Origin: Streptacidiphilus carbonis
GTDB taxonomy: Bacteria; Actinomycetota; Actinomycetes; Streptomycetales; Streptomycetaceae
Length of the DNA: 64,000 nucleotides
Direction: 5' to 3'
Assembly: GCF_000787775.1 (NCBI RefSeq)
Contig: NZ_BBPM01000008.1
Location: 119,904-183,903 of the forward strand
The stretch's first letter is position 1, and each line of letters opens with the position of its first letter. Positions 37,749 through 47,321 of this stretch are shown here, one piece after another. The notes under the pieces are model-generated. The model was not told the origin of the DNA. It made no database searches and saw nothing but the letters and a program-made list of their open reading frames with translations. The translations under genes and the position numbers were made by a program.

Positions 37749-40556
37749 ATGCTTCGACGCCGTAATCCGCCACGCCCGCTGAGCGTGCTGGCAGTGCTCG
37801 CCGCTGTGCTCTTCGCCCTCTGGGGCATCGGGGGTCAGCTGGCCGGCAACTCGACGCTGACCGCGACCGACGAGATGGTCGCCTCCAGTCCCTGGTCCGA
37901 CGCCGGGCTCACCGGGCCGCCCACGCACAACTGGCTGCTGGACGACACCTACACCTCCGAGCTGCCCTCGACCATCCTGTTCAAGCAGGAGCTGGCCAAC
38001 GGCGAGGGCACCGGCTGGAACCCCTACGAGGCCGGTGGCACCAACCTCGGCAATGTCCCCAACCAGGCCCTGCTGTCGCCGCTGACCATCCCGTACTACC
38101 TGCTGCCGACCTGGATCGCCCCCGCCTACGGGCGGCTGTTGGAGATCGTCTGCGCCGTCGCGGGAAGTTTCCTGTTCCTGCGCAGGCTCCGGGTCTCCCC
38201 CGCCGCCGCGGTCACCGGCGGCCTGGTGTTCGCCGGCAGCGCCTTCATGGTGTCCTGGGTGGGCTTCCCGCAGACCAGGGTGGCGGCCTTCATCCCGGTG
38301 CTCTTCTGGACCCTGGAACGGCTGATCCAGGAGCGCAGGGTGCGCGATGCGGCCCTGGTCGCGGTGCCCGTCGCCTCACTGCTGCTGGGCGGCTTCCCCT
38401 CGGTGACGTCCTACGCGCTGCTGACCGCCGGCGTGTACACCCTGGTCCGGCTGCTCGCCGAGTACAGGTCCACGCCGCGGCGGCTGCTCCTCACCGCGCT
38501 CGGCGCGCTGGGCGGGACGGCGGCCGGCGCCGGCCTGGCGATGTTCCAGATGGTGGGCTTCCTCTACTTCTACCCGACCTGGCTGGTCGAGGGGCGTGAG
38601 CAGACGCCGCAGATGCACCTGGCCGCCGTCAACCTGCTGGAGTCGTTCAGCCCCTGGGTCTTCGGCACCGCCAACGCCACCCAGCTGCCGATGTTCATCC
38701 TGCAGCCCAACCTCGTCGAGGCCATGTCGTACATCAGCGCCGCCGCGGTGGTGCTGGTCCTCGTCGCCTTCGCCATGCCGCGCCGGGGCCGGGCGCTGCT
38801 GCCGCGCGGCACCTGGGCGCTGCTGTTCGCGCTGTCCGCGGGCTGGGGCGTGCTGATCTACGTCGGCGGCGCGCCGCTGGAGCTGGTGCAGCGGATGCCG
38901 GTGGCGCGTGCCCTGTTCGCCGCCAACTTCATCGGCCGGGCCCGCAGCGTCCTCGACTTCCTGCTCGCCGTCCTCGCCGCGGTCGGCTTCGACCTGCTGC
39001 TGCGCCGCCGGTCCGAGCTGCCCCGGCTGACCGGCCGGGCGGCGCTGCTCCGGCACTGGCCCTACGTGCTGGGCGCGGGCCTGCTGGCGGCGGGTGCCGT
39101 CCTGGTGGTCCTCGGCCACCATGACGTGGCGGCCACCGGGGACAAGGTGTCCAAGGACGCCTTCACGCACCATCTGCTGATCGGCGCGCTGATGCTGGTG
39201 GCCGCCGGCGCCTGCGCCCTGGTGCTGCGGCTGGTACGGCGGCCCGACCCGCTGTCAGGCGGCAGGCCGCCGCTGCGCGTCCTGCGCTTCGCCGCCGCGG
39301 CCGCGCTTCCGCTGCTGGTGGCCGCCCAGGGCGGGGCCTACATGTCGGCGTACTACGCCAAGTCCAGCACCAAGGCCTTCTACCCGGAGACCGACACCCA
39401 CCAGTACCTGGCTGCCAACCTGGGCGGCCAGCGGTTCGCCAGTTCGATGACAGGCATGGTGTTCGGCACCAACGCCGCCTACGACCTGCGCTCGGTCAAC
39501 GGCCACACCTTCATCAACGCCGCCTTCGCCCCGCTGGTCCAGCAGATCCCCGACGACCCGATCTTCTTCGAGACCTACATCGACTTCCAGGGCACCCACG
39601 ACCAGGCGGTCAGCCCGGTGCTGGACCTGCTGGGCACCAAGTACTTCGTGACCGCCCCGAGCGACCCCGTGCTCGGCAACGAGGTGGACGTCGCCACCGA
39701 CGGGACCACGACCACGCTCCAGCCCGGCACCACGGTCACCGTCCCGGTCCCCGGGACCGGTCCGCTGCGCGGCGTCGGCGTGTGGCCGACCGACGTGCCG
39801 GTGGTCGACAAGGACTCCACCCTCGAAGTAGTGATCAAGGACGCCTCCGGCAGGACGGTCTCCAGCAGCAGCCGGCTCATCAACACCATGACCCAGAACA
39901 TCCTGTTCAGCGTCCCGGTCGCCGCGGACACCGTGGCCGCCGGCACCGTCCTGACCGCCAGCCTCACCGTGCACGGGTCGACCCCGCTCACCGTCGGCGC
40001 CGACCGGGGCGCACTCGCCCTCTCCACCATCCGGAGCGAGGACGACGGACTGCGGCTGGTCCGCGTCCAGGACTCCGCGATCTACCTGCGGCTGAACGCC
40101 CAGCCGCGGATCCGCTGGGCGTCCACCGCCACGGTCGTCCCGGACCAGGAGACGCGACTGGCGCTGCTCTCCTCGGGCACCGTCGGCGCGGACCAGGTCG
40201 TGCTCGACTCCCCCGGTCCGGCCGCCTCCGGGCAGCCCGCGAGCGTGGACGTCACCCACGACGGCACCGACACGGTCACCACCGAGGTCGACGCCAAGGG
40301 CGCCGGCTACCTCGTGGTCGCCGACGCCGACCAGTCCGGCTGGGTCGCGACGGTGGACGGCAGGTCCGCCGCCCTGCTCCCGGCCGACCAGGGCCTGGTG
40401 ACGGTGGCCGTGCCGGCCGGGAAGCACACCGTCACCGTGCGCCTGGCGCCGCCGCACGCCACCCTCGGCAACGCCGTCAGCATCGCCACCGCCGTCCTGC
40501 TGCTGCTGGCCGTGGGCGCCGAGGCCTGGTGGCTGCGCCGCCGCCGGAACGCCTGA
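37749..40556 (+). CDS. YfhO-type large membrane protein (candidate glycosyltransferase)
   Basis: The 935-residue protein has an N-terminal helix (PLSVLAVLAAVLFALWG), a luminal loop, many membrane segments up to ~540, and a large extracellular C-terminal part ending in a final helix (TAVLLLLAVGAEAWWLRRRRNA). It resembles YfhO-family proteins, which in Bacillus use polyprenyl-phosphate sugars to glycosylate cell-envelope polymers. The charged residues ATDEM near the first loop are the expected catalytic site region of such GT-C enzymes. Its neighbours are the GT2 that may make the lipid-linked donor. Confidence 0.85.
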   Translation: MLRRRNPPRPLSVLAVLAAVLFALWGIGGQLAGNSTLTATDEMVASSPWSDAGLTGPPTHNWLLDDTYTSELPSTILFKQELANGEGTGWNPYEAGGTNLGNVPNQALLSPLTIPYYLLPTWIAPAYGRLLEIVCAVAGSFLFLRRLRVSPAAAVTGGLVFAGSAFMVSWVGFPQTRVAAFIPVLFWTLERLIQERRVRDAALVAVPVASLLLGGFPSVTSYALLTAGVYTLVRLLAEYRSTPRRLLLTALGALGGTAAGAGLAMFQMVGFLYFYPTWLVEGREQTPQMHLAAVNLLESFSPWVFGTANATQLPMFILQPNLVEAMSYISAAAVVLVLVAFAMPRRGRALLPRGTWALLFALSAGWGVLIYVGGAPLELVQRMPVARALFAANFIGRARSVLDFLLAVLAAVGFDLLLRRRSELPRLTGRAALLRHWPYVLGAGLLAAGAVLVVLGHHDVAATGDKVSKDAFTHHLLIGALMLVAAGACALVLRLVRRPDPLSGGRPPLRVLRFAAAAALPLLVAAQGGAYMSAYYAKSSTKAFYPETDTHQYLAANLGGQRFASSMTGMVFGTNAAYDLRSVNGHTFINAAFAPLVQQIPDDPIFFETYIDFQGTHDQAVSPVLDLLGTKYFVTAPSDPVLGNEVDVATDGTTTTLQPGTTVTVPVPGTGPLRGVGVWPTDVPVVDKDSTLEVVIKDASGRTVSSSSRLINTMTQNILFSVPVAADTVAAGTVLTASLTVHGSTPLTVGADRGALALSTIRSEDDGLRLVRVQDSAIYLRLNAQPRIRWASTATVVPDQETRLALLSSGTVGADQVVLDSPGPAASGQPASVDVTHDGTDTVTTEVDAKGAGYLVVADADQSGWVATVDGRSAALLPADQGLVTVAVPAGKHTVTVRLAPPHATLGNAVSIATAVLLLLAVGAEAWWLRRRRNA

Positions 40557-40664
40557 GGCCGCCGCCGGGCCGCCGGGGGCGGGGTGAGCTGCCCGAACTG
40601 CTGACGGGGGACGCGGACCTGTCGTACCGTCGGATCTCCAGCTCACGCCGCCCCCGGGGGATCC

Positions 40665-40997
40665 GTGTCCGACTTCAGCGAGATCGAACTCGCCACCGCA
40701 GTCCGCGCCATCCGTGAACAACTGGTCCAGGCCGCCCGGGACGGGGCCGACTCCCCGATCCGCTTCGAGGTAGGACCGGTGCAGATGGACTTCGCGGTGG
40801 AGCTGCGCCGGGAGGCCGGTGCCAGCGGCGGGGTGAAGGCCTGGGTGCTCAGCGCCGGGGCCGAGGCCAAGGCCTCCCGGGGCAGCACCCACCGGGTGTC
40901 CTTCACCCTCACGCCCAAGGACGCGACCACGGGCGGGCCGGTCGAGGTCGGCGAACCGCGGCCCGGCGGCACCTCGCGGTTCGGCGCCGGCGGCTGA
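40665..40997 (+). CDS. Trypsin-co-occurring domain protein (trypco2-like)
   Basis: The 110-residue protein has the pattern of the small trypco2 domain that co-occurs with trypsin-NACHT proteins: a helix ELATAVRAIREQLVQAA, then beta strands FEVGPVQMDFAVEL and HRVSFTLTPK, ending in a Gly-rich tail. It has no enzyme motif. Its stop is separated from the ATG of the trypsin-NACHT gene by one base, so the two are almost certainly co-translated. It may bind the NACHT protein as a regulator or recognition partner; its job is not known. Confidence 0.8.
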   Translation: MSDFSEIELATAVRAIREQLVQAARDGADSPIRFEVGPVQMDFAVELRREAGASGGVKAWVLSAGAEAKASRGSTHRVSFTLTPKDATTGGPVEVGEPRPGGTSRFGAGG

Positions 40998-40998
40998 G

Positions 40999-43900
40999 AT
41001 GGCGACACACCCGCAGCGGGAGCGGATAGCCGCGGTCCAGGGTGCGGGCCAGGGCACGGGCTACCTGCTCACGCCCTGGCTGGTGCTGACGGCAGCACAC
41101 CTCGTCGACGACGAGGCGCCGACCACCGTGGTCGTCCCCGACGGCACCGGTCCGCAGCGCTGCGCCACCGTGTGGAGCCGCTACGACGAGCAGTGCGACG
41201 CGGCCCTGCTGGTGTCCGCGCGGGAGCTGGTCCCGCCGGACGCCTTCCGGGAGTTCAGCACCCTGGTCTGGGGCCGGGTCGAGGACCTGGCCCCGATCCC
41301 CGGGGCGCAGGCCGTCGGCTACCCCCACGTCCAGCGCGACGCCCACGGCGAGCTGGACGCGGAGCAGCTGGTGGGCACGCTCAAGCCGGGGTCCGGCCTG
41401 CTGCGGCACCGCCAGGTGCTGGACAGCCTGCACGGAGCGCCCACCGGGCGGGCCGACGGCGGCTCACCCTGGGCCGGCTTCTCCGGGGCGGCCGTCTTCG
41501 CCGAGAACCGCCTGGTCGGCGTGGTCCGCGCGGACCCGGCCCAGTGGCGGCACGGACGCCTGGAGCTCACCCCGGCTGCGGCCGTCCTCGACTCGCCCTC
41601 GTTCAAGTCCACCTGCGACCGCAACAACCTGGTCCTGGCCTGGGCGGACATCCGGCGCCCCGTCGACGACTTCGAGGAACGCCTCCGGGCCTTCGTGGTC
41701 AAGCAGTCCAGCACCCTGCACATCATCGGCCTGAGCCGGGGCGGCGACGACGAGGACTTCTGGCCGCTGGACACCAGCTACCTCAGCCTGGAGCTGCTCG
41801 GCTCCCCCGCCGAGGGGCCCGACGACCAGGGACCGCTGGCCCAGCGGGCCGAGCACGCCCTGGCCGGGCACCGCCGGGTACTGGTCCGCGGCGCGGCCGG
41901 CTCCGGCAAGACCACCCTGCTGCAGTGGCTGGCCACCAGTGCCGCCCGGCGCGAACTGCCGCCCTCGCTGGCCGAGTCGGACGACTGCGTACCGCTGCTG
42001 ATCCGACTCCGCGCGGTGGCCCGGCGCGATGAGCTCCCCGGCCCGGAGGAGTTCCTGGCCGCCGTCGCCAAACCGCTCAGCGGCAGCGCCGGCGCGGCCG
42101 GCTGGGTCACCGCGCAACTCGCCGCCGGACGCATCCTGCTGCTGGTGGACGGGGTGGACGAGGTCCCCGAGGCGGACCGGGCCCGGACCCGCCGCTGGCT
42201 GCTCGACCTGCTGGACGCCTACCCCGACTGCCGCTACGTGGTCACCACCCGCCCCGCCGCCGTCCGCGAGGGCTGGCTCACCCAGGCGGGCTTCACCGAG
42301 CTGGAACTGCTGCCGATGGGCCGCGACGACGTCTCCGCCTTCATCGGCAAGTGGCACAGCGCCGCCGGGGACGACCCCCGGCTCCAGGACTGGTGCGAGA
42401 CGCTGCGCTCCGCCGTGGTCACCAAGCAGGACCTGGGCCGGCTCGCCGACAGCCCGCTGATGTGCGCGCTGATCTGCGCGCTCAACCGGGACCGCAACGG
42501 CTACCTCCCCGAGGGCCGGATGGAGCTCTACGCCGCCGCCCTGGAGATGCTGCTGGTCCGCCGCGACCGCGAGCGCGGCATCCTGGGCCAGGACGGCTTG
42601 CGGCTGACGGTCGATCAGCAGGTGCAGCTGCTGCAGCGGTTGGCCTACTGGCTGGCCAGGAACGGAGCCGTGGAGATCGAGCGCGGGCTGGCCGTCCGCA
42701 AGCTGGAGGAGGTCCTCCCGGCCATGCCGGCCATCACCGTCGACGCCGAGGCGGTGCTGCACCACCTGCTGGTCCGCAGCGGACTGCTGCAGACGCCGAC
42801 GGCCGAGAGCGTCTGCTTCGTGCACCGCACCTTCCAGGACTACCTGGCCGCCAAGGCCGCGGTCGAGGACGAGGACTTCGGCCTGCTGGTCGGCAACGCC
42901 CACGACGACCAGTGGCACGACGTGATCCGGATGGCGGTCGGCCACGGCCGCCCGCGCGAGCGGGCCAGGCTGCTGCGCGACCTGCTGCGCAAGGCCGACG
43001 CCGACGACGACCTCGGGCTCTGCCTGCTCGCGGCCAGCTGCCTCGAACACGCGACCGAACTCGAACCGGCCGTCCGGCAGGAGGTCACCGAGCGCACCGC
43101 CCCGCTCATCCCGCCCCGCGACAGCGAGGCCGCCCGGGACCTGGCCACCATCGGTCCGCTGATCCTCGGACTGCTGCCCGGCCCGGAGGGCCTGGACGCC
43201 AGGACCGCCTACTCCGTGGCGGTCGCCGCCACCACCGTCGCCACCAGCCAGGCCATCCCGCTGATCGCCCGGTTCGCCGACCACCCCTCGACCACCGTGC
43301 GCGGCCAGCTCACCTTCGCCTGGGGCCGCTTCGACACCCGGGAGTACGGCGAGCGGGTCATCGCCAAGCTGACCTACCACGACAGCTTCCGATTCGTCGT
43401 CAGATCCCGGGAGCAGCTGGAGTTCCTGCTGACCCTGGGCCATCGGCCGAACATCGAGTGCGCCGGACCGCTGACCATGGACGACCTGGCCCTGCTCCCG
43501 CCCGGGCTGGACCACCTGCGGCTGCACGACATCCCCAACCCGATCGACGTCGACGCGGTGCTGCGCCGCACCGGGGCCCGCAACTTCTGGCTCAGCGACT
43601 GCAGTTCCCCGATCGACCTCGGCCCGATCCCCCGCCACCCGGTGGAGGAGCTGTACCTGCACACCAACACCGAGCTGCGGAACGCCGACGCCCTGGCCAC
43701 CGCCGCAACCGTCCGGGAACTGGGCATCGTCAGCGAGACCCCGATCCCCGGCCTGGCCCTGCCGCCCGGTCTGACCCGTCTCCACATCGGCCGCTACGAG
43801 ACCGGCCCCGGCTTCTGGGAGCAGCTGGGCTCCGTCGCCGGACTGCGCCACCTGGCCTTCGACGCGTCCCGCACCGGCGAGCACCAACGGGAGCCGCTGC

Positions 43901-44241
43901 AGGACCTGGGAGGGCTGCGCCGGCTCCGGATCACCCACGAGGACCTCGCCACCCTGCCCCGGCAGCGCCCGCTCCCGCAGACCACCGAACTGGAACTGCT
44001 GCTCCCGACCGGCCTCGACCACCTCCCCGAGCTCGCCCGGGTCTACCCGGGCCTGCGCCGGCTGTCCCTGGTCCAGGAAGGCCCGGAGCCTCCGGACGAG
44101 ACCGTGCTCAACGGCGAATTCGGCGAGCTGCACGACTGCCAGGTCGAGATCCAGTGCTACTCGCCCCCGGTACCGCTCTCGATCTTCGGTATCGGCCAGA
44201 GCGCCTCCCCCACCGAGGTCCGCCGGTTCACCATCCCCTGA
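40999..44241 (+). CDS. Trypsin-NACHT-leucine-rich-repeat-like STAND protein (NLR-like)
   Basis: The 1080-residue protein begins with a trypsin-like protease: H34 in TAAHLVDD, D67 in QCDAALLV, S162 in GFSGAAVF. Next comes a NACHT NTPase: Walker A GAAGSGKTTLL (~298-308), Walker B LLLVDGVDEVP (~380-390), and sensor YVVTTRP (~413-419). The end-of-NACHT motif FVHRTFQDYLAAKA is at ~607-620. From ~835 the C-terminus has short leucine repeats (LDHLRLHDIPN, VEELYLHTNTEL and RLHIGRY), i.e. an LRR-like sensor. The protein is cytosolic. By analogy to bacterial NACHT systems it likely recognises a phage or stress signal and activates the protease, but this is inferred. Confidence 0.9.
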   Translation: MATHPQRERIAAVQGAGQGTGYLLTPWLVLTAAHLVDDEAPTTVVVPDGTGPQRCATVWSRYDEQCDAALLVSARELVPPDAFREFSTLVWGRVEDLAPIPGAQAVGYPHVQRDAHGELDAEQLVGTLKPGSGLLRHRQVLDSLHGAPTGRADGGSPWAGFSGAAVFAENRLVGVVRADPAQWRHGRLELTPAAAVLDSPSFKSTCDRNNLVLAWADIRRPVDDFEERLRAFVVKQSSTLHIIGLSRGGDDEDFWPLDTSYLSLELLGSPAEGPDDQGPLAQRAEHALAGHRRVLVRGAAGSGKTTLLQWLATSAARRELPPSLAESDDCVPLLIRLRAVARRDELPGPEEFLAAVAKPLSGSAGAAGWVTAQLAAGRILLLVDGVDEVPEADRARTRRWLLDLLDAYPDCRYVVTTRPAAVREGWLTQAGFTELELLPMGRDDVSAFIGKWHSAAGDDPRLQDWCETLRSAVVTKQDLGRLADSPLMCALICALNRDRNGYLPEGRMELYAAALEMLLVRRDRERGILGQDGLRLTVDQQVQLLQRLAYWLARNGAVEIERGLAVRKLEEVLPAMPAITVDAEAVLHHLLVRSGLLQTPTAESVCFVHRTFQDYLAAKAAVEDEDFGLLVGNAHDDQWHDVIRMAVGHGRPRERARLLRDLLRKADADDDLGLCLLAASCLEHATELEPAVRQEVTERTAPLIPPRDSEAARDLATIGPLILGLLPGPEGLDARTAYSVAVAATTVATSQAIPLIARFADHPSTTVRGQLTFAWGRFDTREYGERVIAKLTYHDSFRFVVRSREQLEFLLTLGHRPNIECAGPLTMDDLALLPPGLDHLRLHDIPNPIDVDAVLRRTGARNFWLSDCSSPIDLGPIPRHPVEELYLHTNTELRNADALATAATVRELGIVSETPIPGLALPPGLTRLHIGRYETGPGFWEQLGSVAGLRHLAFDASRTGEHQREPLQDLGGLRRLRITHEDLATLPRQRPLPQTTELELLLPTGLDHLPELARVYPGLRRLSLVQEGPEPPDETVLNGEFGELHDCQVEIQCYSPPVPLSIFGIGQSASPTEVRRFTIP

Positions 44242-44376: not shown

Positions 44377-46893
<2,517 letters not shown>

Positions 46894-47321
46894 CGTTAAT
46901 CGCTCCTCAGAGCGGTCGGGCAGTGAGGGGTCGGTCCCCTCCCTGTCCTTCCGCATGCTAGTCCCGGAGGCCGGAACAGCTCACTTCAACCGCCGACACC
47001 CCACCGTCCCGCAATGCTCGCGACGGCGGACAATGACTCCAACCGAATGCTGCGGGATGGTGTTCCCGCAGGCCAGGCAGATCCACCCGGAAACGCTACG
47101 CCGACGGCGAACGCTTCCCCCGACACGCCGCGAGGATTCGGGCGCACAGTCCTCACATGGGCATTCATACCCGCGGTGCACCCAGGTCCATACCGACTTT
47201 CCCGCATCAGGTGTTCGCCTACCGAGAAGTCGGACGATCGGTGCGGGCCGGATGCGTGACAGCGGGCAGCGGAAGGGACCCCCAGCGTAACCGGAGCCGG
47301 CTGTCGCGAGTTGGGCAGGAT
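46894..47321. other. Long intergenic region upstream of clpC (428 bp)
   Basis: It contains the clpC promoter region and a probable ClgR operator. A minus-strand open frame, 46981-47181, has Cys clusters (CPCEDC, CLACG and CGTVGC) but poor start context and overlaps the proposed operator, so it is not called a gene. No other feature is seen. Confidence 0.5.
47096..47113 (-). promoter_or_regulatory. Probable ClgR operator upstream of clpC
   Basis: Read on the minus strand the site is CGTTCGCCGTCGGCGTAG, i.e. GTTCGC-N5-GCGTAG. This is close to the remembered actinobacterial ClgR consensus (GTTCGC with GCG(A/T)A after a five-base spacer). It lies about 200 bases upstream of the clpC start. ClgR activates Clp genes in streptomycetes. 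Confidence 0.5.

What the first reader, a model, noticed from the sequence alone, without database searches (positions are those of the whole stretch)
40665..44241. Trypsin-NACHT-LRR-like protein with one-base-coupled trypco2 partner: candidate NLR-type immunity module
The 1080-residue protein has an intact His34/Asp67/Ser162 triad, full NACHT Walker motifs and C-terminal leucine repeats; a small trypco2-like protein is one base upstream. Trypsin and NACHT co-occurrence with trypco domains is a known conflict-system theme in bacteria, and NACHT proteins have been shown to act in anti-phage defence. This exact pair, with the protease as the N-terminal effector, remains functionally undescribed to my knowledge. 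It sits between a glycan cluster and clpC, like an insertion into otherwise core gene order.
Basis: partly seen in the sequence, partly recalled or inferred. Interest (0 to 1): 0.88.

Follow-up and report, generated by a model that had tools for sequence, protein, structure and literature searches.

The report
Bacterial NLR with trypsin-like effector
Next to the core chaperone gene clpC, this actinobacterium carries a bacterial relative of animal NLR immune receptors whose weapon is a built-in protease, paired with a small partner protein (Trypco2); relatives keep an NLR at the same spot but exchange the weapon, so it looks like a long-lived, convertible immune slot, though its function has not been tested.

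Summary
ORF 40665-40997 is Trypco2 (PF19631, E=5e-30). ORF 40999-44241 is trypsin-like protease, NACHT and LRR in one protein. The model (pLDDT 86) best matches NLRC4, NOD2 and NLRP3 in the PDB. His34/Asp67/Ser162 are invariant in all 77 relatives checked.

A relative lies in 13 of 14 genomes of the genus (Streptacidiphilus), always just 3' of clpC. Across 150 Streptomycetaceae genomes, 60 of 110 homologous NACHT genes, in 50 genomes, lie within 20 kb of the clpC 3' end, all convergent with it. At that site the effector is exchanged: trypsin, or the helical domain NNH1. One same-genus pair shows the swap directly. The LRR evolves fastest (dN/dS 0.73-0.89, against 0.24-0.30 for NACHT).

Trypco2 follows the protease, not the NLR. 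It is adjacent in 47 of 62 trypsin-NACHT loci (30 of 30 at clpC) and in 0 of 62 NNH1/HTH-NACHT loci. Fourteen genomes with a Trypco2-less copy were searched, and all carry Trypco2 elsewhere.

Best reading: an NLR-type immune switch with a protease effector and a protease-dedicated regulator. It is a new variant of a known kind. Phage defence, the trigger and the substrate are untested.

The parts
40621..40633 (+). candidate promoter element GTCGTACCGTCGG (TANNNT-type -10 within it) upstream of Trypco2
   Evidence: TAYCGT lies about 36-65 nt upstream of the start in several trypsin-type loci, including the Trypco2-less verticillate copies; background 0.005 per 90 nt; not present in all loci. 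Weak.
40665..40997 (+). Trypco2 protein, 110 aa
   Evidence: PF19631 E=4.8e-30; dN/dS 0.31-0.38; low-confidence model, helix plus strands, pLDDT 65
40999..44241 (+). trypsin-NACHT-LRR protein, 1080 aa
40999..41643 (+). trypsin-like protease domain, residues 1-215
   Evidence: PF13365 residues 19-175; beta-rich fold in the model
41098..41100 (+). catalytic His34
   Evidence: invariant in 77 of 77
41197..41199 (+). catalytic Asp67
   Evidence: invariant in 77 of 77
41482..41484 (+). catalytic Ser162 (G-F-S-G)
   Evidence: invariant in 77 of 77
41872..42363 (+). NACHT NTPase domain, residues 292-455
   Evidence: PF05729 E=4.4e-26
41890..41916 (+). Walker A, GAAGSGKTT, residues 298-306
   Evidence: G298, A300, G301, G303, K304 and T306 invariant in 21 homologs
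42136..42162 (+). Walker B, LLLVDGVDE, residues 380-388
   Evidence: D384, G385, D387 and E388 invariant
42364..43398 (+). NACHT-associated helical and winged-helix region plus helical spacer, residues 456-800; contains the nearly invariant FVHRTFQDYL
43441..44163 (+). LRR solenoid, residues 815-1055: fast-evolving putative sensor
   Evidence: strand spacing; LRR profile match to PDB; dN/dS 0.73-0.89
44377..46956 (-). clpC, convergent core neighbour that marks the conserved site (context, not part of the module)
   Evidence: position

Best explanation
A two-gene, NLR-type immune switch that occupies an old, effector-convertible NLR site beside clpC. Inferred mechanism: (1) the fast-evolving LRR senses an invader molecule or a perturbed host factor; (2) the NACHT ATPase goes from closed to open and oligomerises; (3) this brings together and switches on the N-terminal trypsin-like domains, which cleave one or more proteins and stop or kill the infected cell; (4) Trypco2, translated just ahead of the protease, is a protease-dedicated partner, most likely a restraint that keeps the protease silent until assembly (about 40%), otherwise its first substrate or released effector (about 30%) or an adaptor (about 20%). 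Shown here: the domain architecture and fold, conserved catalytic and ATPase residues, sensor divergence, effector exchange at a fixed site, and linkage of Trypco2 to the protease rather than to the NLR. Inferred: trigger, oligomerisation, substrate, cell death and phage defence.
For: Architecture and fold; top PDB fold matches are NLRC4, NOD2 and NLRP3, E down to 2e-22. Triad invariant in 77 of 77; Walker motifs invariant. LRR dN/dS 0.73-0.89 against 0.24-0.30 for NACHT. Effector exchange: the same NACHT-LRR type carries trypsin, NNH1 (PF22733) or an HTH domain; at least 3 effector changes on the tree of clpC-site NACHTs. G020 (NNH1, no Trypco2) and G034 (trypsin plus Trypco2) are same-genus sisters at the same site, and their homology begins just before NACHT. 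Trypco2 linkage: 47 of 62 trypsin-NACHT loci, 30 of 30 at clpC, 0 of 62 NNH1/HTH loci. It also sits beside related trypsin domains fused to TPR-type STAND proteins or to EAD2. All 14 searched genomes with a Trypco2-less copy hold Trypco2 elsewhere, mostly with a second trypsin-NACHT at clpC. No trypsin was found among the NACHT proteins fetched from nine Trypco2-free genomes. Trypco2 without a recognisable protease or NLR does occur beside clpC, so the dependence looks one-sided. Precedent: STAND- or oligomerisation-driven trypsin-like proteases act in Avs1 and Hachiman (PMC12799240) and in LypABC (PMC13236601).
Against: No phage assay exists. Neighbours are core or glycan genes, not a defence island. 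Presence in 13 of 14 genus members is also compatible with a fixed physiological or developmental role. The Trypco2 model is poor (pLDDT 65) and has no PDB match, so its role rests on linkage alone. Trypsin-NACHT copies without an adjacent Trypco2 exist with an intact triad.
Confidence: 0.6

Rival explanations
1. Trypco2 is the effector or pro-effector: the NLR-activated protease cleaves Trypco2 and a fragment stops growth, as Avs1b cleaves and opens the gated nuclease Avs1a.
For: The only constant neighbour besides the protease; separate upstream gene with a fused downstream protease, the same layout as nuclease-protease pairs (PMC12799240); conserved core plus a variable C-terminal tail.
Against: No catalytic motif, no transmembrane segment and no PDB relative seen. 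Trypco2 remains where the protease-NLR is not recognisable. One Trypco2 apparently serves two protease-NLRs.
Confidence: 0.25
2. It is a physiological or developmental signalling protein (proteostasis, sporulation) kept beside clpC because it works with ClpC, and not an immune protein.
For: Conserved convergent position at clpC in 50 of 150 family genomes; present in 13 of 14 genus genomes.
Against: Absent from most family genomes although clpC is nearly universal (146 of 150). Effectors are swapped, copies are tandem-duplicated or lost, homologs lie on plasmids, and the sensor evolves fast.
Confidence: 0.15
3. The clpC association is purely positional: a site tolerant of gene exchange between convergent genes where an ancestral NLR happened to sit, with no functional tie to ClpC.
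For: Convergent 3' ends are a permissive place. Homologs occur only elsewhere in 19 of 69 genomes and also on plasmids. Nothing in the LRR points to ClpC.
Against: None strong; compatible with the main explanation and the default for the position.
Confidence: 0.75

Closest known systems
Bacterial NLR-related NACHT proteins (bNACHT, e.g. bNACHT25; PMC12169576)
   Same: Central NACHT, N-terminal effector, C-terminal sensor; that paper notes that bacterial NACHT-LRR proteins exist.
   Different: The effector here is a trypsin-like protease, not a PD-(D/E)XK nuclease; true LRR sensor; dedicated Trypco2 partner; defence not tested.
Trypsin and Trypco2 in MoxR-vWA-VMAP ternary conflict systems (Kaur et al. 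2020, PMC7159879)
   Same: A trypsin-like peptidase with a neighbouring Trypco gene; source of the Trypco2 family name.
   Different: No MoxR or vWA gene next to this pair; the switch is a NACHT-LRR protein.
AVAST type 1 (Avs1a/Avs1b; PMC12799240)
   Same: STAND-linked trypsin-like protease plus a small upstream partner gene; the weak Avs1b match (E=5e-5) covers only the protease.
   Different: No metallo-beta-lactamase nuclease; protease, ATPase and sensor are one chain; the Avs1b curated cut-off is missed widely (14.6 against 1500 bits).
CARD-NLR systems, LypABC (PMC13236601)
   Same: Trypsin-like peptidase controlled by an NLR-type ATPase.
   Different: No CARD-like domain, no separate peptidase gene, no gasdermin or endonuclease partner next to it; LRR instead of TPR.
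Animal NLRs (NLRC4, NOD2, NLRP3)
   Same: Best solved-structure matches by fold; same order of NACHT, helical domains and LRR.
   Different: 13-17% identity; N-terminal protease instead of CARD or PYD.

Membership tests
Bacterial NACHT/NLR protein | NACHT NTPase with Walker A and B | tested here: met
   PF05729 92 bits, cut-off 26.7; invariant motifs
Bacterial NACHT/NLR protein | C-terminal leucine-rich repeats | tested here: met
   Family profile against LRR structures E about 1e-20; model strands spaced 20-26 residues. No single-sequence Pfam LRR hit
Bacterial NACHT/NLR protein | N-terminal effector domain | tested here: met
   Trypsin_2 28.2 bits, cut-off 27.6; triad invariant 77 of 77
Bacterial NACHT/NLR protein | protects against phage | not testable with these tools
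Trypco2 family (PF19631) | match above the curated cut-off | tested here: met
   104 bits against 24.2
Trypco2 family (PF19631) | co-occurs with a trypsin-like peptidase | tested here: met
AVAST type 1 | Avs1b equivalog score and MBL nuclease Avs1a | tested here: not met
   14.6 bits against 1500; no nuclease in the adjacent genes scanned
MoxR-vWA-VMAP ternary system | adjacent MoxR and vWA genes | tested here: not met
   adjacent genes are YfhO-like and clpC
CARD-NLR / gasdermin system | Death-like (CARD) domain and effector partner | tested here: not met
   protease begins at residue 1 with no N-terminal helical domain; no gasdermin or endonuclease in the adjacent genes scanned
PADLOC / NCBIfam named defence systems | hit to a named defence model above its curated cut-off | tested here: not met
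   best PADLOC E=5e-5 (Avs1b, protease part); NCBIfam hits far below cut-off

The most novel reading that the evidence does not exclude
Streptomycetaceae keep a dedicated NLR 'socket' at the 3' end of clpC in which effector cassettes are exchanged, and the protease cassette travels with its own restraint protein, Trypco2, giving a toxin-antitoxin-like safety catch on an NLR protease. In the boldest form the NLR guards ClpC itself.
Probability: 0.3. Interest if true: 0.8.

Novelty: new variant of a known kind. Interest (0 to 1): 0.6.

Why it matters
It gives a bacterial protein with the full NACHT-LRR plan of animal NLRs but with the protease built in, so receptor and executioner are one chain. 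The clpC site is a natural swap series (trypsin plus Trypco2 against NNH1, even between members of one genus) that makes two open questions testable: what Trypco2 does for conflict-system proteases, and what NNH1, a common effector-position domain of unknown activity, does in the same chassis. I found no description of the clpC-linked NLR site in the held literature.

Tried and rejected
Lsr2 link: the Trypco2 profile's top PDB hits were Lsr2 (E=0.19), and lsr2 is a near neighbour of clpC here; profile-profile comparison gave probability 0.2%, so rejected as chance.

Insertion hypothesis: rejected by synteny.

Trypco2 is always adjacent: rejected. 15 trypsin-NACHT loci lack it, mainly verticillate Streptomyces, but the 14 genomes searched have it elsewhere.

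Loss of catalysis in those copies: rejected, triad intact.

Tryptic specificity (Asp six residues before Ser): rejected; mostly Ser at that position, so the name trypsin describes fold, not known specificity.

Trypco2 fold assignment: failed.

Phage-borne relatives: none in the phage collection.

Variable sites in the LRR were not concentrated in the strands (44% against 63% outside), so no binding face can be named.

Full report
WHAT IS THERE. Two + strand genes sit between a YfhO-like membrane protein gene (37749-40556) and the convergent core gene clpC (44377-46956, - strand). The first, 40665-40997, is a Trypco2 protein. One base after its stop begins a 1080-residue protein with a trypsin-like domain, a NACHT ATPase and a C-terminal LRR. 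Single-sequence Pfam finds no LRR. A profile of 48 relatives matches solved LRR proteins at about 1e-20. The AlphaFold2 model (mean pLDDT 86) shows a protease fold, NACHT, helical domains and an 11-strand LRR solenoid. Foldseek's best solved structures are NLRC4, NOD2 and NLRP3. By fold and order of parts this is a bacterial NLR whose N-terminal domain is a protease.

ARE THE PARTS FUNCTIONAL. His34, Asp67 and Ser162 are present in all 77 trypsin domains aligned, including copies fused to other proteins. Walker A and B residues are invariant. Between close relatives, dN/dS is 0.24-0.30 in NACHT, 0.32-0.35 in the protease, 0.31-0.38 in Trypco2 and 0.73-0.89 in the LRR: constrained switch, effector and partner, and a rapidly changing sensor.

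POSITION. In the genus, 13 of 14 genomes have a homolog, and in all 13 the clpC flank holds one, convergent. In 150 Streptomycetaceae genomes, 110 NACHT genes of this type occur in 69 genomes. Sixty of them, in 50 genomes, lie within 20 kb of the 3' end of clpC, mostly within 1-5 kb, and all 60 are convergent with clpC. A random place would fall there about 0.2% of the time, although shared ancestry means these are not independent events. Among 80 named relatives, 33 lie beside clpC: 25 with an NNH1 N-terminus and 8 with trypsin plus Trypco2. Verticillate Streptomyces also hold Trypco2 and trypsin-NACHT at clpC, besides a second, Trypco2-less trypsin-NACHT elsewhere. So this is a long-held NLR site with loss, tandem duplication (up to three copies, G117) and effector exchange.

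EFFECTOR EXCHANGE. The same NACHT-LRR type carries trypsin, NNH1 or an HTH domain. On the tree of clpC-site NACHTs at least three effector changes are needed (3 changes throughout the 5-95% bootstrap range). The cleanest case is a same-genus pair, G020 and G034, sisters at 100/100. G020 has NNH1 and no Trypco2; G034 has trypsin plus Trypco2. Protein homology starts just before NACHT (67% over 687 residues), and the LRR ends diverge.

TRYPCO2. In 134 loci (known duplicates removed), Trypco2 adjoins 47 of 62 trypsin-NACHT genes, 30 of 30 at clpC, and 0 of 62 NNH1- or HTH-NACHT genes. It also adjoins related trypsin domains on other chassis: nSTAND5-TPR proteins and an EAD2 protein. The fourteen genomes searched whose trypsin-NACHT lacks an adjacent Trypco2 all hold Trypco2 elsewhere, most often at the clpC site. 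NACHT proteins fetched from nine family genomes without Trypco2 never carried trypsin. The reverse is seen: in several relatives Trypco2 sits beside clpC with no recognisable protease or NLR. Trypco2 is therefore a partner of the protease, usable in trans by more than one copy, and the dependence looks one-sided, as for a restraint or obligate cofactor. Which of these it is cannot be decided here. The single-chain model is weak and has no PDB match.

MECHANISM. By established knowledge of STAND proteins, ligand binding by the C-terminal repeats opens the ATPase and drives oligomerisation. Clustering of the N-terminal domain would activate the protease. Trypsin-like proteases coupled to oligomerising defence proteins cut open pro-nucleases in Avs1 and Hachiman (PMC12799240), and peptidase activity is needed for LypABC lysis (PMC13236601). 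No nuclease or gasdermin is adjacent here, so the substrate is either Trypco2 or a host or phage protein. All of this paragraph is inference for the window protein.

NOVELTY. Trypsin and Trypco2 association and peptidase-STAND fusions are published predictions (PMC7159879, PMC8195603). Full-text searches found no report of this clpC-linked NLR site or of a tested Trypco2; the library lacks most subscription papers. I rate it a new variant of a known kind.

Noticed in passing
G000:C87:38721-39751 (loci L002, L004, L094): A second Trypco2 plus trypsin pair in the same genome; the trypsin protein is about 406 aa with no NTPase domain found.
   Followed up: partly
L234, L235, L236, L239, L240: Trypco2 beside clpC (about 150-400 bp) with no recognisable protease or NACHT; L238 holds a NACHT remnant and L241 looks decayed.
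   Followed up: partly
L074, L092, L192: HTH-NACHT-LRR proteins (Cro/C1-type HTH in effector position) form one clade; one is on a 23 kb Streptomyces plasmid. A DNA-binding domain in the effector slot of an NLR is odd.
   Followed up: no
L036 and L066: Tandem trypsin-NACHT genes with a single Trypco2 between them, suggesting one Trypco2 serves two proteases.
   Followed up: partly
window 40621-40633: GTCGTACCGTCGG; a TAYCGT-centred element recurs upstream of many trypsin-type loci and may be the promoter.
   Followed up: partly
G013 clpC flank (L046): The one Streptacidiphilus genome without any NACHT or Trypco2 of this type; the content of its clpC flank was not resolved.
   Followed up: no
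L231: Another Trypco2 plus trypsin gene pair in Streptacidiphilus sp. 4-A2, far from clpC; the partner of its 1061-residue protease frame was not identified.
   Followed up: no
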